From the NCBI GenBank assembly GCA_025350815.1, contig JANXXE010000063.1, positions 1-63,798 on the forward strand: a stretch of 63,798 nucleotides of DNA. Direction: 5' to 3'. The position numbers were made by a program, and so were the translations under genes. Every line of letters begins with the position of its first letter. Within the stretch, counting starts at the first letter, position 1. The notes under the pieces are model-generated. The model saw only the letters and a program-made list of their open reading frames with translations, made no database searches and was not told the origin of the DNA. Origin of the DNA: Myxococcales bacterium. GTDB taxonomy: Bacteria > Myxococcota_A > Polyangia > Fen-1088. Shown piece by piece: positions 38,359 through 48,058 of this stretch.

Positions 38359-39678
38359 ATGTGCAAGACGCCGACTGCCGATGCGACTCCAACCCTGATG
38401 GTGAGGGGACTTTGCGTGGCCGCGATGGCCCTGGCCTGCGGCTGTTCGGGGTCGATGTCCTCGCCAGCACCGGATCCGGCCGCGACGGACGACGCGACGC
38501 CGGCCCCGAAAGCGCGTGACGCGGGCACCGGCGGCACCACGGTTGCGACCATGCCGCCCGACGCAGCGGTTGCCGCGGCCGATCGCCCCGCCCAGACGCC
38601 CGTGGCGTCCGATGCCGCCACGACAACACCAACGGGCACGTCCGATGCCTCGTCGTCCGATCTGCCTGTCACGCCCGTGATGGGCTCGACCCTGGCGTTC
38701 GTTGGTGGCGACGATGGCAATGTGTTCGTCTTCGCGTTCGACACCACCAACTGCACCCTTACCCAGAAAAGCATGCTGCTGGCGGTGAAGGACGCCTGGT
38801 ACGGCGCGGTCGATCCCACGGGTCAGCGCCTGTACATCGGCAGCCTGGCGGGAAGCAAGGTTCTGGCCTACACCATCGATCGCACCGCGGCGACGCTGAC
38901 CTTGATCAACAGCGTGGCCGTCGGGGGACCGGCCCACATATCACTGGATCGCCGGGGCAAGTTCTTGTTCGCGGCCGGGTTCGGCGCGGGCAGGGTCACC
39001 GTTCTGCCCATTCGCGCCGACGGGGGCCTGGACCCGGGAATGTCCTGGCCCGTCGGCAGCAGCCCGCATTCGACGGCCATCGATCCCAGCAACAAATACC
39101 TGTTCGTTCAGAACATGGGATCGGACGCCATCAGCCAGTTCACCTTCGACCAGCAGGCCGGATCACTGGCGGCGAACACACCGGCGACGCTGATGCTGGC
39201 CGCCAAGATCGGTCCGCGCAATGGCGCTTTCCATCCGACGCTGCCGTACTACTACACGGCCAACGAGATCAGCAATACGGTGTCGACCTACAGCCTGGCC
39301 GGCAACGGGACCCTGACTGTGATCGAGACGCAAACCGCCGTGCCACCGGGTTTCGCCAGCACCACCTACGTGGCCGAGGTTCATGTGGCCCCATCGGGGA
39401 AGTTCGCCTATGTGTCGAACCGCGGGGCCGACACGATCGCCGTGTTCGGGATCGATCAGGCGACCGGCAAGCTAACGCCGCTGGGCCAGGCCGCAACGGG
39501 GGGAAACTTCCCGCAGTCGCAGAATTGGGACGCCACCGGGCAGCATTTGCTGAGCGCCAACGTCGGGGGCAAGAGCGTGACCTGCTTTGCTGTCGACCAG
39601 GCCACGGGGGCCCTGACCAAGAAGAGCGTGGCGACCCTGAGCGCGAAGGCCCTGTGGGTGGGCGTGCTGCCCCGCTGA
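38359..39678 (+). CDS. Lactonase-type seven-bladed beta-propeller lipoprotein
   Basis: A 439-residue lipoprotein (lipobox LACGC). After a Thr/Pro/Ala-rich linker of about 85 residues, the rest matches the 6-phosphogluconolactonase/lactonase-like propeller (PF10282): repeated strands such as RLYIGSLAGSKVLAYTID, KFLFAAGFGAGRVTVLP, YYYTANEISNTVSTY and KFAYVSNRGADTIAVFG. Members may be lactonases or simply binding propellers. It lies 90 bp after the DUF1552 gene and could be in the same unit. Confidence 0.82.
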   Translation: MCKTPTADATPTLMVRGLCVAAMALACGCSGSMSSPAPDPAATDDATPAPKARDAGTGGTTVATMPPDAAVAAADRPAQTPVASDAATTTPTGTSDASSSDLPVTPVMGSTLAFVGGDDGNVFVFAFDTTNCTLTQKSMLLAVKDAWYGAVDPTGQRLYIGSLAGSKVLAYTIDRTAATLTLINSVAVGGPAHISLDRRGKFLFAAGFGAGRVTVLPIRADGGLDPGMSWPVGSSPHSTAIDPSNKYLFVQNMGSDAISQFTFDQQAGSLAANTPATLMLAAKIGPRNGAFHPTLPYYYTANEISNTVSTYSLAGNGTLTVIETQTAVPPGFASTTYVAEVHVAPSGKFAYVSNRGADTIAVFGIDQATGKLTPLGQAATGGNFPQSQNWDATGQHLLSANVGGKSVTCFAVDQATGALTKKSVATLSAKALWVGVLPR

Positions 39679-40216: not shown

Positions 40217-40317
40217 ACAGACTCAGGTCGGTCGCTCGCGCATCCGGGGGTGTTGACAGCTGCCGCACAGCGACCTGGGCGATGACCTGAGGCCCGATTG
40301 CGGTATCGTGCGTGCCC

Positions 40318-41193
40318 ATGGGGTCGCTTCTTTCTTTGCCTCCCACCGTTACCGAGGTCAGCGGCGACTTGCCAGCGGTCACCGTGTGCAACCGCCACGC
40401 GCGCGCCAAGGTCTTCCTTCAGGGCGCACATGTCGCGTCTTTCCGACCCGTCGGGCAGGGCGAACTGCTGTGGATGAGCGTGCGCAGCCTGTTCGCGCCG
40501 GGCAAGCCCATCCGCGGCGGGATCCCTGTCTGTTTCCCCTGGTTCGGCATGCACGCGGGGCGGCCCGAGTTGCCGGCGCATGGCATCGCGCGCCTGCTGC
40601 CGTGGACCCTGACGGGCGCCGAGGACTTGCCCGACGGCAGCACGCGGCTGGTGCTGGGGTTGCAATCGTCGGTCGAGACGGCGGCGTCCTGGCCGCAATC
40701 GTTCGCGCTGACCTACAGCGTGTCCGTCGGCGCCGCGCTGAACGTGGCGCTGGAAGTCCGCAACACGGGTGCGCAGCCCCTGGTATTCGAGGAAGCGCTG
40801 CATACGTACCTGGACGTGGCCGACGTTCGCCGCGTGGGCGTCGAGGGACTGGCGGGTGCGCGTTACCTCGACAAGGTGGACGGCGGCATCGAAAAAACGC
40901 AGACGGGCACGCTGACGTTCACGGCCGAGACCGACCGTGTGTTTCCGGGCACCACGGGCACCTGCCGCGTCGACGATCCGGTGCTGGGCCGTCGAATCGT
41001 CGTCGCCAAGACGGGATCCGCCACCACGGTGATCTGGAACCCCTGGATCGCCAAGGCCGCCCGCATGCCCGACTTCGGCGACGAGGAATGGCCGGGCATG
41101 CTGTGCATCGAGGCGGCCAATGCCGCAGCCGACCATCTGACACTGGCGCCTGGCCAGACGCAGGTCATGGCGCAGACGATTTCCGTCGGGTGA
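40318..41193 (+). CDS. D-hexose-6-phosphate mutarotase (aldose-1-epimerase type)
   Basis: A 291-residue protein of the YeaD family. Visible are GAHVASFRPVGQGELLWMS, RGGIPVCFPWFG (typical PWFG loop), PAHGIARLLPW, EEALHTYLDVAD and a VIWNPWIAK near the end. It interconverts anomers of hexose 6-phosphates. The start is ATG 40318 (a GTG six bases upstream is less likely). It ends 58 bp before the PEP mutase gene and is in the same direction. It may be unrelated to the phosphonate operon. Confidence 0.88.
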   Translation: MGSLLSLPPTVTEVSGDLPAVTVCNRHARAKVFLQGAHVASFRPVGQGELLWMSVRSLFAPGKPIRGGIPVCFPWFGMHAGRPELPAHGIARLLPWTLTGAEDLPDGSTRLVLGLQSSVETAASWPQSFALTYSVSVGAALNVALEVRNTGAQPLVFEEALHTYLDVADVRRVGVEGLAGARYLDKVDGGIEKTQTGTLTFTAETDRVFPGTTGTCRVDDPVLGRRIVVAKTGSATTVIWNPWIAKAARMPDFGDEEWPGMLCIEAANAAADHLTLAPGQTQVMAQTISVG

Positions 41194-41251
41194 TGGTAAT
41201 TCGATTGTTTTCAATGTTTGATCCCCCTCAGTGGTAGTAACAGCGGCGGCC

Positions 41252-42163
41252 ATGAAGAAAACCACGCAGTTTCGCCGCCTCCTCGCGTCGCCCCAGGTGG
41301 AATTCCTGATGGAGGCGCACAATGGCCTGTCCGCCAAGATCGTCGAGGAAGCCGGATTCAAGGGCATCTGGGCCAGTGGCCTGGCCATGTCGGCGGGGCT
41401 GGGCGTGCGCGACAACAACGAGGCGAGCTGGACGCAGGTGGTGGAAACGGTCGAGTTCATGGCGGATGCCACGACCGTTCCCATCCTGATGGATGCGGAC
41501 ACCGGCTACGGCAACTTCAACAACGTGCGTCGCCTGGTGCGCAAGCTGGAATCGCGCGGCGTCGCGGCGATGTGCATCGAGGACAAGCTATTTCCCAAGA
41601 CCAACTCGTTCATCCGCGGCGAGCAACAGCCGCTGGCCCGGATGGATGAATTCGCGGGCAAGATTCGCGCTGCCAAGGACACCCAGGTGGATCCCGACTT
41701 CACGGTGGTCGCGCGGGTCGAGGCGCTGATCGCCGGTTGGAGCATGGACGAGGCCCTGCGCCGCGCCTATGCCTACCGAGAGGCGGGGGTCGACGCGATC
41801 CTGATCCACAGCAAGCAATCGAGCCCCGACCAGATCCTCGAATTCTTACGCAACTGGGACACGGGCTGTCCGGTTGTCATCGTGCCGACCATTTACTTTG
41901 CCACACCGTCCAGCGTGTTCGAGCAGGCGGGGGTGAGCCTGGTCATCTGGGCGAACCATCTGATGCGTTCGGCGATCACCGCGATGCAGGCGACGGCCGC
42001 GACCATCATGCGCGAGCGGTCCGTGGCCAGCCTCGAACCCAAGATTGCCTCGCTGGCCGAGGTATTTCGCCTGCAGGGCGAGGCCGAGTTGGCCGCCGCC
42101 GAGGAAAAGTTCCTGCCCAAGACCGCCCCGATAGTGACTGACAAGGTGCCGGGTGCTGTCTGA
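41252..42163 (+). CDS. pepM: Phosphoenolpyruvate mutase (C-P bond forming)
   Basis: A 303-residue enzyme that rearranges phosphoenolpyruvate to phosphonopyruvate, the entry step of nearly all phosphonate synthesis. The diagnostic [11 protein letters not shown] motif lies at residues 110-120. Other expected residues align with those known for the mussel enzyme at a constant offset: D54 (RDNNE), D81 and D83 ([12 protein letters not shown]), E110, N118 and R155 (VARVEA). The [10 protein letters not shown] segment near the end is also typical. The motif separates it from methylisocitrate and oxaloacetate lyases. Start at ATG 41252; a GTG at 41231 is an alternative. The next gene overlaps by 11 bases. 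Confidence 0.95.
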
Positions 42164-43343
42164 CCGCGCGCGCGCGCTGACCGGTTCGCAGACGTCGGGG
42201 ATGCGCAACCGCGCCCGCAAGCTGCGCGCCGAGGGTGTCCACGTCATCAATTTTGCGGCCGGCGAGCTGGATCAGGACACCAGCGATTCGATCAAGGGCG
42301 CCGCCCGGCAGGCCATCGACGCGCGCCGCAACCAGTACACCGACACGCTGGGCATTCGTGAGCTGCGTGAGCGCCTGGCCGCGCGGGTCACGCACAAGAC
42401 CGGCGCGACCTATGCCGCCGAAGAGGTGGGCTTCACCGCAGGTGCGAAACAGGCGCTGTTCAACGCTGTTTTCGTGTCGTTCCAGGGCAACGACGAGGTC
42501 ATCATTCCGGCGCCCTATTGGGTGACGTTCCCCGAGCAGGTGCGGCTGGCCGGCGCAACGCCGGTGTTTCTGCCCACGGCGCACAACGACTTTCGCATCG
42601 ACACCGACGAGCTGGCGCGCGCGATCACGCCGCGCACCCGGGGCATCATTCTGAACACGCCGCACAACCCGACGGGCGCGGTTTGTTCGGCGGCGGTGCT
42701 GGAGGGGCTGGCCAGGCTGGCCCTGCAGCACGATCTGACCGTCGTCTTCGACGAATGCTACGACGAGCTGGTTTACGAGCCGGCGGTCCACCACAACATC
42801 GTGAAGCTGGTGCCCCAGATGAAGGCGCGCACCATCTTGATAGGCTCGTTTTCGAAGACCTATTGCATGGCTGGCTGGCGCGCGGGGTACATCGCGGGGC
42901 CCCAGGCGACAGTGAAGGCCGTCGCGAATCTGCAAAGCCACACGGCGTCGAATGCCTGCAACATCGTCCAGTACGCCACGCTGGCCGCCCTTGAGCCAGG
43001 CAACGACAAGTTCGTCGCTGGCATTCGCGCGCAACTGCGCGAGCAACGGTCCGTGGCACAGGCCTGTCTGGCCGCCATCCCCGAGCTGTCGTGTGTCGCC
43101 CCCGAGGGCGCCTTCTATGTGTTTCCCGATGTGAGCCGCCTGCTGACGATGTCCTTCCGCGGCCAGCGACCAGAAAACGTCGACACCCTGGCGGAGATGC
43201 TGCTGGAACACGCGCACATTGCCGTTGTCCCGGGCTCCGCGTTCGGTTCCGACCGCCATGTCCGCATCTCGTACGCGATCCCGGCCGACGAGATCAAGAC
43301 GGGCTTTGCGCGCCTCGCAGGTTTTGTTAAGTCCTTGGTGTGA
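42153..43343 (+). CDS. Class I PLP aminotransferase, likely acting on phosphonopyruvate
   Basis: A 396-residue fold-type I aminotransferase from GTG 42153. The PLP lysine is K235 in [21 protein letters not shown] (171-175) and D200/Y203 ([10 protein letters not shown]) bind the cofactor, and R in SYAIPADEI-adjacent HVRISYA binds the carboxylate. It resembles aspartate/aromatic aminotransferases. Because it overlaps the PEP mutase gene and no decarboxylase is present, I infer it converts phosphonopyruvate to phosphonoalanine, driving the unfavourable mutase step. The gene's stop overlaps the next start (GTGA). Substrate identity is inference. Confidence 0.88.
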
Positions 43344-44617
43344 GCCTGGATTCCCCAAAATCGCACGGGCCCGCCCCGACCCCGGGTGTGGTCCTGTTCA
43401 TGGGCATGGTCCGCCGGGGCGAATTCGAGGCCCTGCAGCGCCGGGGCCTGGCGCTGGGCGTTCTGGTCGACACCAACAGCAAGCACCGCCTGGCTGACGT
43501 GTCGGGTTTTGCGCTGGTCGAACGATTCGATTTTTCGCGACCGCTGGCCGAACTTATCGAAGCCGTCCGTGGCATTCGGGCGCGCGTTGGCGTCGCGTGC
43601 CTGTTCAACGTGATTGAATTCTACGTGGCCCAGACGGCCGACGTTGCCGCCGCCCTGGGCCTGCCCAGTATTTCGCCGGCGGCGGCGCGCCTGTGCCTGG
43701 ACAAAAGCATCATGCGCCAGCGCTTCCAGGAAAGGATCGCCACCGGGGCGGCCGCGCGGTTCCAGGTCGTCGCCTCCGAGGCCGACTTGCTGGCCGTGGC
43801 CGACAGATTCGGATACCCGGTGTTTCTGCAGCCGTCGAACGTCTCGGCCAGCATGTGGTCGACGCGCAACAACGATGCCCAGACGTTGCTGGGCAACTAC
43901 CGGACGATTTGTAACGACGTGCCTGCCTATTACGAAAGGCTGGGGCAGAAGGGCAAAAGCCTCGACGTTGTCGTGGCCGAGTATCTCGATGGTGGCAACA
44001 CGTCGATAGACTGCCTGGTCGAACAGTCGGGCCAGGTGCACACGACGCCGGTGGTCGATGTGTTGACCGGCCAGGACGTGGGCATCGACGACTTTCACCA
44101 TTTTGCCCGGCTGTTGCCGTCGCGATTGCCAGCCGCCGGGCAGCACGAACTGGACCGGCTGGCGGTGGCGGGCGTGCAGGCGCTGGACATCACAGCGTGC
44201 GCCTCGCACGTCGAATTCATCGGCAACCGCCTGGGGGAAATTGCCGCGCGGCCCGGCGGCAACCGCCCGCGCATTTTGGAACTGGCGTACGGCATCGACG
44301 AGCTGTTCGCGTACCACCAGATACTTCGTGGTCAGCGCCCCGATCTGCGCGGCGATCGCAACCTGGCGGCGGCCGTCGTCACGCCGTTCCCCGCGCGGGC
44401 CGGCACCTTGCGGTCAATTCGGCACCTCGACCGGCTGGTCACCCTGCCAGGCTACCTGTACCACGAGCTGCGCGGGCAACCCGGTCAGGCGGTGGGCCTG
44501 GCCAAGGGCGGTTACCGCGCGCCGCTTTACGTCGAGCTGTCGTCGCCGGACGCCGAAACGGTCCGGGGCAGCGTGTACGAAATCGCCTCCTGGACGGATC
44601 TGTACGAGCTGGACTGA
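43340..44617 (+). CDS. ATP-grasp ligase
   Basis: A 425-residue protein of the ATP-grasp superfamily. An N-terminal preATP-grasp domain (VVLFMGMVRRGEFEALQ, and LGVLVDTNSKHR) is followed by the two-lobe ATP-binding fold: PSISPAAARLCLDKSIMRQRF near 120, FGYPVFLQPSN near 160, VVAEYLDGGNTSIDCLV near 215 with acidic metal ligands, and HVEFIGNRLGEIAARPGGNR (about 292-311) in the second lobe. This layout is shared with L-amino-acid ligases such as BacD. Next to the PEP mutase and aminotransferase, it likely forms a peptide or amide bond on phosphonoalanine. It starts at GTG in a 4-base overlap. Confidence 0.87.
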   Translation: MSLDSPKSHGPAPTPGVVLFMGMVRRGEFEALQRRGLALGVLVDTNSKHRLADVSGFALVERFDFSRPLAELIEAVRGIRARVGVACLFNVIEFYVAQTADVAAALGLPSISPAAARLCLDKSIMRQRFQERIATGAAARFQVVASEADLLAVADRFGYPVFLQPSNVSASMWSTRNNDAQTLLGNYRTICNDVPAYYERLGQKGKSLDVVVAEYLDGGNTSIDCLVEQSGQVHTTPVVDVLTGQDVGIDDFHHFARLLPSRLPAAGQHELDRLAVAGVQALDITACASHVEFIGNRLGEIAARPGGNRPRILELAYGIDELFAYHQILRGQRPDLRGDRNLAAAVVTPFPARAGTLRSIRHLDRLVTLPGYLYHELRGQPGQAVGLAKGGYRAPLYVELSSPDAETVRGSVYEIASWTDLYELD

Positions 44618-44618
44618 A

Positions 44619-45824
44619 ATGCGGTGGCGCTCGGATTCGGCGGCGACCATCTGGCTTGTGTGCGTCGGCATCGGGTTGCTGTTTGTGGTACGCGGGGCGT
44701 TCGTTCCCTATGCCTTCCCGCTGTTCGAGCACCTGGGCGGACTGTCGTACGCGCAAATTGCCCTGTTGCTGAACGGTTATGTGATGGCGCAATCGGTCTG
44801 CGCGCCGCTGGCCGGCTGGTACACCGATCGAACATCGGTGCGCGTGGCCCTGGGCACCAGCATTGCCTTCGGTCTGGTCAGCTTTCTCGTTATCTCGACG
44901 GCGCCGGGGCTGGCGCTGTCGGCGGTCGCCGTATTTGGTGCGGGCCTGGCCTTCGTGCTGGGCAAGATCGCGCTGAACACCTTGCTGGTGCTGCATTCCA
45001 GTGCCGAGAACCTTCGCAGGTCTGTGGCCAAGCGCGCGACGCTGCTGAATCTGGGTTCGTTCTTTGGCAACAGCACGGCGCTGCAGATGACCACTCGGTT
45101 CGGTTACGGCGCGCACGCGGTCTTATTGGCGCTGCTGCATCTGCCGCTGGCGATTGGGCTGGCGGCGGCGCCGGTCCCCGCGCCTGAACGCCGCGAGGTC
45201 TGGAATATGGCGGGGCTGAAGACCCTGTGCGCCAGTCGCGGTTTTCAGGCCGACAGCCTGCGGCGCTTCGCCATGGTCCTTCCCTATGGTTGCTGGGGCA
45301 CCATCATTCCCAAGTACGTCATCGATCAGTACGGATCGAACAGTCCGGTGTGGATCGTTTACCTGACCAGCCTGTGCACGACCATCGCGGGCGCGCACGT
45401 TCTGTCGGTGCATCTGTCGGCGTACCTGTACCGCCGCGGGTTCAAGTGGCACTGGTGGTCGATGGTCTCGGTGGTGCTGTACTGCACGGGCCTGGCGTTG
45501 TTGATGTTCGCGCGCAATCCCGTGATGCTGCCCCTGGCGGTGGTGATCTTCATCTGTGGCGAGGTGGTCATGACCCCGTGTTTCGACGAGACGGCGAAGA
45601 CGCACGCGGGGACGGCCGGCATGGCGACGTGTCTGGGCCTCCTGCATCTGGTGGACGGATTCGGCCGCATGCTGGGCGCCGCGTTTGCGCTGGCTGTGTA
45701 CGGCTGGACGAGACACACCGTCTACCAGCCGCTGTTCTGGCCCGTGGTGGTTGCGGCCTTCCTCTGCGTCTCGTCGGCGCTGCACGTCGTTGCGTACGCA
45801 CGCCATGGTAAGGCGGCGACGTGA
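44619..45824 (+). CDS. MFS transporter, probable phosphonopeptide exporter
   Basis: A 401-residue polytopic protein with the signature of the major facilitator superfamily: about twelve hydrophobic helices, with APLAGWYTDRTSVRVALG between helices 2 and 3 and a FVLGKIALNTLLVLHS helix. It starts 2 bases after the ATP-grasp stop (TGAAATG), so it is coupled to the biosynthetic genes. Export of the product or self-protection is the natural role; an importer is possible. Frame was resolved using ATG 44619; longer upstream reading lies inside the ATP-grasp gene. Confidence 0.85.
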   Translation: MRWRSDSAATIWLVCVGIGLLFVVRGAFVPYAFPLFEHLGGLSYAQIALLLNGYVMAQSVCAPLAGWYTDRTSVRVALGTSIAFGLVSFLVISTAPGLALSAVAVFGAGLAFVLGKIALNTLLVLHSSAENLRRSVAKRATLLNLGSFFGNSTALQMTTRFGYGAHAVLLALLHLPLAIGLAAAPVPAPERREVWNMAGLKTLCASRGFQADSLRRFAMVLPYGCWGTIIPKYVIDQYGSNSPVWIVYLTSLCTTIAGAHVLSVHLSAYLYRRGFKWHWWSMVSVVLYCTGLALLMFARNPVMLPLAVVIFICGEVVMTPCFDETAKTHAGTAGMATCLGLLHLVDGFGRMLGAAFALAVYGWTRHTVYQPLFWPVVVAAFLCVSSALHVVAYARHGKAAT

Positions 45825-47545
45825 CGGCGTTTCGGCGGGCGGTCCTGGTCGTCCTGCTGCTATTGCCGGCGTACGCCTGCAAGCGCCGCGCGGACACGCC
45901 GGATGCGGCGCCTACCTTCAAGGAACATCCCGCGCAGGTCGTCGAAGGCCATCAAGGCGTCGTGGTGTCGGTGTCGCGCCCCGCGTCCGACGTGGGTCTG
46001 GCCATCCTGAAGGCCGGGGGCAACGCCGTCGATGCCGCGACTGCGACCGCCTTCGCGCTGGCTGTCTCCTATCCGCCCGCGGGCAATTTGGGGGGCGGCG
46101 GCGTCTTGCTGGTTCACCCCGCGCCGGGACAGGGCCCGCCGGTGGCGTTTGACTACCGCGAAACCGCACCCGCCGCTGCGTGGCCGACGATGTTTCGCAA
46201 GGACGAAACACAGTTCAGTCACAAGGCTGTCGCCGTGCCCGGGACAGTTCGTGGATTCGCGTTGGCGCACAGGCGTTTCGGTAGCCTGACCTGGGCGGCG
46301 CTGCTGGCCCCGGCGATTGACCTGGCGGCGGGCGGGTTTCCCATCGACGCCAATCTTGTCGAATCGCTGAATACGACGCTAGCCACCTCGCCGGGTATGG
46401 CCGAACTTCAGCGCGTGTACGGCAAGCCGGGCGGCGGTCGCTGGAAGCTGGGCGACAGACTGGTGCAACCGGATCTGGCGCGGACGTTGCGCCAGCTTGC
46501 CGATCTTGGGCCCGACGCTTTTTACAAAGGACCGATAGCCGCTGCCATCGTCGCTGACATGGTCCGGGGCAAGGGCCTCATCACGGCCGAAGATCTGGCC
46601 GGCTACCGGGCCATCGAGCGCAAGCCGTTGACGACGCGCTATCGCGGTCGCTACGACGTCTTCGTTCCGCCACCACCCAGTTCGGGGGGTGTCTGTCTTC
46701 TGGAAGAACTGAACATGCTCGATGCCTTCGACTTCAAGGGCTGGGGTCGCTGGTCGCCCGAACTTCTGCACCTTTTGGCCGAGGTCATGCGCCGGGCGAA
46801 TTACGACCGCGCCCGGTACCTTGGTGATCCGGCCTTCGCCGCGCTACCCGACAAGCTGACGGATCCCGCCTACGGCCGGCAGTTGGCGAAAACCATAGAC
46901 CGGGCCAAGGCCACGCGCAGCCGCGATCTGGCGACGGACATCGCGATGTCGCCCGAGGGCGAGAACACGACGCATTTTTCGATTATCGACACGCGCGGGA
47001 TGGCGGCCGCGAACACGTACACGCTGGAACGGCGCTGGGGCTCGCGCATCGTGGTGAAGGACATGGGCTTCCTGCTCAACAACGACATGTTCGCCTTCAA
47101 CTTGGTTCCGGGCAGCACGACCGCGACGGGGGACATCGGAACCGCGCCCAACACCATCGCGCCGGGCAAGCGCCCGCTGACCTCGCAAACACCGACCATC
47201 GTCGCCGAGGGCGGCCGCGTGAAACTGGTAACGGGCAGTCCGGGCAGCCGGGCCATACCGCACACCATCCTGGGCATTGTCGTCAGCGTTTTCGACTTCG
47301 GCATGCCCCTGCCCGCGGCGGTCGAGGCGCCGCGTCTGTCGCACCAATGGTTTCCCGATCAGATCACGTTCGAGACGCCCGAACGCTACCCCGACACGGT
47401 CAGGGCGCTCAGGGCGTTGGGCCACACGGTCATTCGCTCCGGGCCGTTGCCCCAGGGGGATGCGCACAGCATCTGGGTGGCGGGGCCCGGGCGCTACGTC
47501 GGCGTCGCTGACTGGCGCATCAGTGGCGCGGCGGCCGGCTACTGA
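45821..47545 (+). CDS. Gamma-glutamyltransferase-family exported enzyme
   Basis: A 574-residue GGT-type Ntn-hydrolase. The hydrophobic N-terminus ends PAYACKRR, a weak lipobox or signal. Large-subunit marks are GGNAVDAATATAFALAV, YPPAGNLGGGG, FDYRETAP and PGTVRGFALAHRRFG. The autocleavage site and Thr nucleophile are in GENTTHFSIIDTRG, followed by LNNDMFAFN. Length is normal. It overlaps the transporter gene (GTGA). GGT cleaves gamma-glutamyl amides, so in this operon it may trim a gamma-glutamyl group from a phosphonopeptide outside the cell, or be a housekeeping gene that shares the transcript. Confidence 0.9.
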   Translation: MTAFRRAVLVVLLLLPAYACKRRADTPDAAPTFKEHPAQVVEGHQGVVVSVSRPASDVGLAILKAGGNAVDAATATAFALAVSYPPAGNLGGGGVLLVHPAPGQGPPVAFDYRETAPAAAWPTMFRKDETQFSHKAVAVPGTVRGFALAHRRFGSLTWAALLAPAIDLAAGGFPIDANLVESLNTTLATSPGMAELQRVYGKPGGGRWKLGDRLVQPDLARTLRQLADLGPDAFYKGPIAAAIVADMVRGKGLITAEDLAGYRAIERKPLTTRYRGRYDVFVPPPPSSGGVCLLEELNMLDAFDFKGWGRWSPELLHLLAEVMRRANYDRARYLGDPAFAALPDKLTDPAYGRQLAKTIDRAKATRSRDLATDIAMSPEGENTTHFSIIDTRGMAAANTYTLERRWGSRIVVKDMGFLLNNDMFAFNLVPGSTTATGDIGTAPNTIAPGKRPLTSQTPTIVAEGGRVKLVTGSPGSRAIPHTILGIVVSVFDFGMPLPAAVEAPRLSHQWFPDQITFETPERYPDTVRALRALGHTVIRSGPLPQGDAHSIWVAGPGRYVGVADWRISGAAAGY

Positions 47546-47799
47546 CCGCGGCGATTCTTCTGCGCGATGCCGAAGATGATCAAGGTGAAGGCGACCAGAC
47601 GTCCGACGTAGTAGTAGTGGTGGGTTTCGTCTGCGGGGCCGGCCAAGGAAAGTGCCAGCCAAGTCAGTGACATCACCCAGAAGGCGGCTGCGAAAATCAG
47701 CAACAGCCGGTCCTTCGATGTCCGCCAGAACCGCAGAAACAGCAGGCCCGCCATTGCGCTGGCCATGGTGAGGGCGCCCCAAACGAACTGAAGTGTCAT
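47539..47799 (-). CDS. DUF5985-family membrane protein (copy 2)
   Basis: An 86-residue protein with three hydrophobic helices (FVWGALTMASAMAGLLFLRF, LLLIFAAAFWVMSLTWLAL, VGRLVAFTLIIFGIAQ). It looks like a DUF5985 protein. It starts one base after the stop of a similar protein and both are of the same size, so the pair probably arose by duplication and work together. It ends 3' of GGT in convergent orientation, overlapping by 7 bases. Confidence 0.7.
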   Translation of the reverse strand: MTLQFVWGALTMASAMAGLLFLRFWRTSKDRLLLIFAAAFWVMSLTWLALSLAGPADETHHYYYVGRLVAFTLIIFGIAQKNRRGQ

Positions 47800-47800
47800 G

Positions 47801-48058
47801 TCACAGGGCTTCCCAGATGAGGCCGAACACCAGCAGGCATAGCGCGACGAGGGCGATGCAGGCGCGCCACAGTGAGAGGTCGACGGTGGGCGCCATGACC
47901 AGGTCAACGAACAGGACGATGTTGTTCAGCGCAAGACCCAGGAAGCACAGGCTGCTCCACAGCAGCAAGCGCGTGCGGTTCTTCCGGTAACTTCTGGTCA
48001 ACATCGCGGCGCAGATCATGCTTGTGATGGCGCACAAGACATAGACCGCCTCAGCCAT
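47801..48058 (-). CDS. DUF5985-family membrane protein (copy 1)
   Basis: An 85-residue protein with three hydrophobic helices (AVYVLCAITSMICAAMLTR, RLLLWSSLCFLGLALNNIVLF, and IALVALCLLVFGLIW). The short basic loop YRKNRTR after helix 1 parallels WRTSKDR of copy 2, supporting a paralogous pair. The gene overlaps the upstream HTH regulator gene by 8 bases, so the three are cotranscribed. Confidence 0.7.
   Translation of the reverse strand: MAEAVYVLCAITSMICAAMLTRSYRKNRTRLLLWSSLCFLGLALNNIVLFVDLVMAPTVDLSLWRACIALVALCLLVFGLIWEAL

What the first reader, a model, noticed from the sequence alone, without database searches (positions are those of the whole stretch)
41252..47545. Five-gene coupled operon for a phosphonoalanine-containing product, without phosphonopyruvate decarboxylase
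PEP mutase, a PLP aminotransferase, an ATP-grasp ligase, an MFS transporter and a GGT follow each other with overlaps of 11, 4, 1-2 spacing and 4 bases. Established: PEP mutase makes phosphonopyruvate, and most pathways pull it by decarboxylation. Here no decarboxylase gene is next to it, so transamination to phosphonoalanine is the simplest second step (inference). The ATP-grasp would then join phosphonoalanine to an amino acid. The set looks small and complete enough to make one product.
Basis: partly seen in the sequence, partly recalled or inferred. Interest (0 to 1): 0.9.

Follow-up and report, generated by a model that had tools for sequence, protein, structure and literature searches.

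The report
Phosphonoalanine-type biosynthesis operon with altered GGT
Five tightly coupled genes look like a small pathway that makes a carbon-phosphorus analogue of aspartate (phosphonoalanine), probably joins it to an amino acid and exports it; the chemistry is known from Streptomyces and Bacillus, but this gene set was not found elsewhere and two of its enzymes carry unusual active-site changes.

Summary
PEP mutase, class I/II aminotransferase, ATP-grasp, MFS and GGT-family genes lie on the + strand (41231-47545) with 11- and 4-base overlaps, 1-base spacing and a 4-base overlap. The mutase passes the PEP-mutase model and fails the phosphonopyruvate-hydrolase one. No Ppd was found in the 97.7%-complete genome. 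Independent evidence for transamination: in 72,556 plasmids, 24 of the 25 best hits of the aminotransferase lie by a PEP mutase in rhizobia, and the window enzyme forms a 100/99-supported clade with these, apart from housekeeping aspartate aminotransferases, own-genome paralogue included. The mutase itself nests among PEP mutases whose neighbour is a 2-hydroxyacid dehydrogenase, not a decarboxylase. None of the 80 closest PEP-mutase loci in GTDB, and none of 28 read in its phylum, has this gene set. The ATP-grasp model matches L-amino-acid ligases, but an ATP-binding lysine is Gln. The 'GGT' keeps its catalytic Thr and donor Arg but alone of 32 sequences lost Asp433, Ser462 and Gly484; it is probably an exported acylase/peptidase of other specificity. 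Best reading: a phosphonoalanine (di)peptide-type product, convergent with the phosphonoalamides. New variant of a known kind.

The parts
41231..42163 (+). PEP mutase (alternative start ATG 41252)
   Evidence: TIGR02320 384 bits vs cut-off 319.6; fails TIGR02321 phosphonopyruvate hydrolase (249 vs 374); 413 bits to mussel PEPM 1m1b, [10 protein letters not shown] motif and Asp/Glu metal site kept
42153..43343 (+). Class I/II PLP aminotransferase, predicted phosphonopyruvate transaminase (PLP Lys235)
   Evidence: Pfam PF00155; clade with 7 rhizobial PEPM-neighbour ATs at 100/99; best plasmid hits PEPM-linked; shared derived residues
43340..44617 (+). ATP-grasp protein, predicted amino-acid/peptide ligase; ATP-binding Lys replaced by Gln164
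   Evidence: PF13535; AlphaFold model pLDDT 75.7, top Foldseek hits L-amino-acid ligases 3vot, 4wd3, BacD; K->Q
44619..45824 (+). MFS transporter, predicted exporter
   Evidence: PF07690 51.8 bits; no plasmid homologue at 1e-5
45821..47545 (+). Divergent GGT-family Ntn hydrolase with an N-terminal signal sequence (lipobox-like PAYAC)
   Evidence: TIGR00066 445 bits vs cut-off 357.9; Thr nucleophile and Arg114 kept, D433A, S462T, G484S, N411E, Y444T
40312..41193 (+). Aldose-epimerase-like gene directly upstream, 37 bp gap; membership of the operon uncertain
   Evidence: PF01263 132 bits

Best explanation
A biosynthetic operon for a phosphonoalanine (PnAla) product. PEP mutase makes phosphonopyruvate from PEP (family membership shown; activity inferred). 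The aminotransferase, of a PEPM-associated branch of aspartate-aminotransferase-like enzymes, converts it to PnAla and so pulls the unfavourable first step (inferred from clade, gene linkage and the precedent of PnaA). The ATP-grasp enzyme joins PnAla to an amino acid or peptide (inferred from fold and precedent). The MFS protein exports the product. The GGT-family enzyme, exported and probably membrane-anchored, cleaves or transfers an acyl group that is not a normal gamma-glutamyl group, as a maturation, release or self-protection step (inferred).
For: Coupled gene order; PEPM over its curated cut-off with the PEPM motif; a single PEPM and no Ppd in the genome; no PhnJ of C-P lyase. AT: 24 of 25 best plasmid hits have a PEPM in the same cluster on the same strand (<=4.5 kb; annotated examples), and the window AT plus these form a 100/99 clade that excludes 51 aspartate aminotransferases and the own-genome paralogue. 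Shared derived residues (P39 and F41 of GEPDF lost, Y126F, I202C, V233F) with PLP Lys and the S-x-T / G-x-K-Q residues kept. PEPM nests in the clade linked to 2-hydroxyacid dehydrogenase, not Ppd (95 SH-aLRT). The six best fold matches of the ATP-grasp are L-amino-acid ligases. Precedent: pnaABCD suffice for phosphonoalamides, PnaA transaminates phosphonopyruvate, ATP-grasp ligases make the peptides (PMC11867202).
Against: K164->Q at a lysine kept in BacD and in all relatives compared may disable or alter the ligase; only one ATP-grasp is present where phosphonoalamides need two. The sequences of Streptomyces/Bacillus PnaA could not be fetched, so identity with that enzyme is untested. The product of the rhizobial PEPM-AT clusters is unknown as well. 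No expression or chemistry data.
Confidence: 0.66

Rival explanations
1. PnAla is made, but the ATP-grasp protein is not a working ligase; the product is free PnAla, or an amide made otherwise, and the GGT-like enzyme does the only acyl chemistry.
For: Gln in place of the ATP-binding Lys; divergent GGT donor site; a second ligase is missing.
Against: Both metal-ligand Glu and the first catalytic Lys (K122) are kept; the ORF is intact and coupled; the fold matches amino-acid ligases.
Confidence: 0.16
2. The aminotransferase acts later or on another keto acid, and phosphonopyruvate is first reduced or otherwise drained by an enzyme encoded elsewhere.
For: The closest PEPMs (70-75% identity) sit mostly beside a 2-hydroxyacid dehydrogenase; three distant dehydrogenase homologues exist in the genome (30-39% identity).
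Against: These are only 30-39% identical and not in the operon; the AT is directly coupled to PEPM and its clade is PEPM-linked.
Confidence: 0.09
3. Catabolic operon: PnAla is deaminated and a phosphonopyruvate-hydrolase-like enzyme releases phosphate (PalB/PalA-like).
For: PEPM-fold protein plus aminotransferase is also the logic of phosphonoalanine degradation (recalled, not tested beyond the family scores).
Against: TIGR02321 score far below cut-off while TIGR02320 is passed; [10 protein letters not shown] motif; presence of a ligase-like gene and an exporter-like gene.
Confidence: 0.05
4. A missed Ppd makes phosphonoacetaldehyde and the operon leads to an aminoethylphosphonate product.
For: Draft genome, 226 contigs; all six comparison PEPM genomes of its class (family members G292, G295 included) carry Ppd next to PEPM.
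Against: No Ppd match at 97.7% completeness; PEPM is not of the Ppd-linked kind; the AT is not class V.
Confidence: 0.04

Closest known systems
Phosphonoalamide (pna) biosynthesis, Streptomyces and Bacillus
   Same: PEPM coupled to an AAT-like aminotransferase without Ppd, ATP-grasp ligation, transporter (PMC11867202)
   Different: One ATP-grasp instead of two, carrying a Lys-to-Gln change; a GGT-family enzyme is added; different organism group; PEPM in a dehydrogenase-linked clade
Rhizobial plasmid/symbiosis-island pepM-aminotransferase clusters
   Same: AT is of the same clade, directly downstream of PEPM, no Ppd annotated beside it
   Different: Followed by cytidylyltransferase, CDP-alcohol phosphatidyltransferase and often asnB, suggesting a lipid or headgroup; no ATP-grasp/GGT of this kind; PEPM only 55-59% identical
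PEPM + 2-hydroxyacid dehydrogenase + other ATP-grasp clusters (Ignavibacteria, Chloroflexota, Planctomycetota)
   Same: Closest PEPMs (65-75%), no Ppd at the locus
   Different: Reductase-like gene instead of aminotransferase; unrelated ATP-grasp
Gamma-glutamyltranspeptidase (E. coli GGT)
   Same: Ntn-hydrolase family, Thr nucleophile, Arg114
   Different: Donor-site N411, Q430, D433, S462 and G484 all changed

Membership tests
PEP mutase (TIGR02320) | Curated score cut-off | tested here: met
   384 vs 319.55 bits
PEP mutase (TIGR02320) | EDKxxxxxNS motif and catalytic Asp/Glu | tested here: met
   [23 protein letters not shown] aligned to 1m1b
Phosphonopyruvate hydrolase (TIGR02321) | Curated score cut-off | tested here: not met
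   249.4 vs 374.4 bits
PEPM-associated aminotransferase clade | Groups with ATs adjacent to pepM, apart from housekeeping AATs | tested here: met
   100/99 support
PEPM-associated aminotransferase clade | Phosphonopyruvate transaminase activity | not testable with these tools
   needs enzyme assay
Phosphonoalamide BGC | PEPM plus AAT-like aminotransferase, no Ppd | tested here: met
Phosphonoalamide BGC | Two ATP-grasp ligases (PnaB, PnaC) | tested here: not met
   only one ATP-grasp in the operon
Phosphonoalamide BGC | PEPM at least 80% identical to known producers | not tested
   pna sequences could not be fetched; closest PEPM found is 75%
L-amino-acid ligase (BacD/YwfE type) | ATP-grasp fold of this type | tested here: met
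   Foldseek top six, E 1e-20 to 1e-22, TM about 0.7
L-amino-acid ligase (BacD/YwfE type) | ATP-binding lysines and metal Glu residues | tested here: inconclusive
   K122 and both Glu kept, second Lys is Gln164
Gamma-glutamyltransferase | Family score and Thr nucleophile | tested here: met
   TIGR00066 445 vs 357.85; T391 equivalent kept
Gamma-glutamyltransferase | Gamma-glutamyl donor and oxyanion residues (D433, S462, G484) | tested here: not met
   A, T, S; kept in 31 of 31 others

The most novel reading that the evidence does not exclude
A new phosphonopeptide class in which the exported, neofunctionalised GGT-family enzyme removes or transfers a non-glutamyl (perhaps phosphonoalanyl or aspartyl-type) acyl group outside the cell, giving a prodrug-like release step not known for phosphonates.
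Probability: 0.25. Interest if true: 0.75.

Novelty: new variant of a known kind. Interest (0 to 1): 0.56.

Why it matters
It supports transamination as a third recurrent way of pulling PEP mutase, ties one aminotransferase clade to PEPM in two unrelated settings (this operon and rhizobial symbiosis plasmids), and so makes PnAla prediction from sequence testable. The GGT-family enzyme with a rebuilt donor site inside a phosphonate operon is a concrete lead for new tailoring chemistry.

Tried and rejected
Searches that gave little: ATP-grasp in viral contigs (no relative) and in 284 genomes of the phylum (best about 30% identity apart from itself); MFS in plasmids (none); literature on pepM with GGT (none). 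Recent gain judged by composition: GC is flat across the region, so no support. Synteny of the upstream epimerase in relatives: only 37-40% homologues in 3 of 19 relatives, uninformative. Promoter/terminator scans at chance level. The G047 AT with the highest pairwise identity (43%) has no PEPM beside it and falls with housekeeping AATs.

Full report
OBSERVATION. The five ORFs, strands, order and junctions are as described: PEPM 41231/41252-42163, aminotransferase (AT) 42153-43343, ATP-grasp 43340-44617, MFS 44619-45824, GGT family 45821-47545. Pfam and, except for the MFS, NCBIfam support the assignments. Third-position GC is 0.81-0.86 throughout. The upstream epimerase-like gene ends 37 bp before PEPM and may share the transcript.

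FIRST STEP. PEPM passes the PEP-mutase equivalog model and fails the phosphonopyruvate-hydrolase model. It aligns over its whole length with the mussel enzyme and keeps the motif and metal-site residues. It is the only PEPM in the genome. Ppd was not found anywhere in the draft (97.7% complete), nor PhnJ of C-P lyase.

WHERE THE MUTASE COMES FROM. The 80 closest PEPM loci in GTDB r220 fall into two kinds by neighbour: Ppd, mostly with AEP transaminase, or a 2-hydroxyacid dehydrogenase with an unrelated ATP-grasp; six were unassigned, several of them cut by contig ends. None carries homologues of this AT next to it, nor of this ATP-grasp, MFS or GGT. A tree puts the window PEPM inside the dehydrogenase-linked clade (SH-aLRT 95, short search). 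In the phylum, 41 other genomes of 378 sampled have a PEPM at E<=1e-40. Of 28 further loci read, most show a cytidylyltransferase-like stretch directly after the mutase and a Ppd downstream, and none an AT of this kind. So the window operon is not the usual aminoethylphosphonate arrangement of its phylum.

SECOND STEP. tblastn of the AT against 72,556 plasmids gives 1837 records with a match. Of the 25 best, 24 have a PEPM in the same cluster, mostly directly upstream (positions; annotation); the remaining one was not checked. A maximum-likelihood tree with 51 aspartate aminotransferases from relatives, sampled genomes of another phylum and the PDB groups the window AT with seven rhizobial PEPM-neighbour ATs at 100/99; the own-genome paralogue lies elsewhere. 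The clade shares derived residues, among them loss of P and F in the GEPDF motif, Y126F, I202C and V233F, while the PLP lysine and S-x-T / G-x-K-Q positions persist. The latter are remembered as distal-carboxylate contacts of thermophilic AATs (memory, not tested). As phosphonopyruvate is an isostere of oxaloacetate, the simplest function is phosphonopyruvate to phosphonoalanine. PnaA of Streptomyces does exactly this and drives PEPM (PMC11867202). Activity of the window enzyme is inferred, not shown.

THIRD STEP. The ATP-grasp has only distant relatives (about 32% at best). An AlphaFold model (pLDDT 75.7) matches L-amino-acid ligases first (3vot, RizA, YwfE/BacD). Against a plain ligase stands K164->Q, where BacD and all the relatives aligned have Lys; K122 and both metal Glu are kept. 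Ligation of PnAla to an amino acid therefore remains likely but unproven.

EXPORT AND GGT. The GGT-family protein has an N-terminal signal sequence with a lipobox-like PAYAC (sequence reading). Against E. coli GGT and 30 GGTs of relatives, own paralogue included, the Thr nucleophile, T409 and R114 are kept, but D433->A, S462->T and G484->S are unique to it; N411->E is shared with one sequence; Q430->D and Y444->T also differ. The alignment near G484 allows a one-residue shift. In the literature D445A of B. subtilis GGT loses transpeptidation but keeps 40% hydrolysis, and D433N/Y444A/G484A in E. coli GGT creates cephalosporin acylase activity (PMC8062742). The operon enzyme is altered at all three of those positions. 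It is thus most likely a hydrolase/acylase for a donor other than gamma-glutamyl compounds, acting after export.

COMPARISON AND NOVELTY. By chemistry it works like the phosphonoalamide pathway; as membership, the two-ligase feature is not met and PnaA/PnaD sequences could not be fetched. By AT lineage it is kin to rhizobial pepM-AT clusters. In M. loti R7A pepM, aatA and asnB were strongly expressed in nodules but not in a nifA2 mutant (PMC3538637); the product is not stated in the passages read. No held paper linking pepM with GGT was found. Hence: new variant of a known kind.

LIMITS. Draft MAG-like genome; no named organism; PEPM tree by short search; plasmid and phylum samples are not the whole of sequence space; no chemistry.

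Noticed in passing
L115 7921-9162, L117 7909-9096, L120 7926-9110, L153 5913-7103: Rhizobial plasmids carry pepM, a class I/II AT of the window AT's clade, cytidylyltransferase and often CDP-alcohol phosphatidyltransferase and asnB, with no Ppd annotated beside it; in M. loti R7A pepM/aatA/asnB are nodule-expressed and NifA2-dependent (PMC3538637). Possibly a PnAla-derived lipid or headgroup of symbiosis.
   Followed up: partly
L029, L032-L035, L037-L039, L041, L043, L045, L049, L050, L053, L058, L059, L064: Recurrent D-2-hydroxyacid dehydrogenase - PEPM - ATP-grasp clusters across several phyla (Ignavibacteriota, Chloroflexota, Planctomycetota, Acidobacteriota), probably a phosphonolactate branch; glycosyltransferase-like genes nearby in some.
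   Followed up: partly
window 45821-47545 versus G000:C90:3576-5180 (L218): The genome has a second, ordinary GGT with all donor-site residues kept; only the operon copy is altered.
   Followed up: yes
window 38359-39678: Seven-bladed beta-propeller lactonase gene upstream of the operon; a lactonase fragment also lies upstream of aepX in S. meliloti AK83 (L115). Probably coincidence.
   Followed up: no
window 47539-48058: Two overlapping reading frames on the minus strand both match DUF5985, directly downstream of the operon.
   Followed up: no
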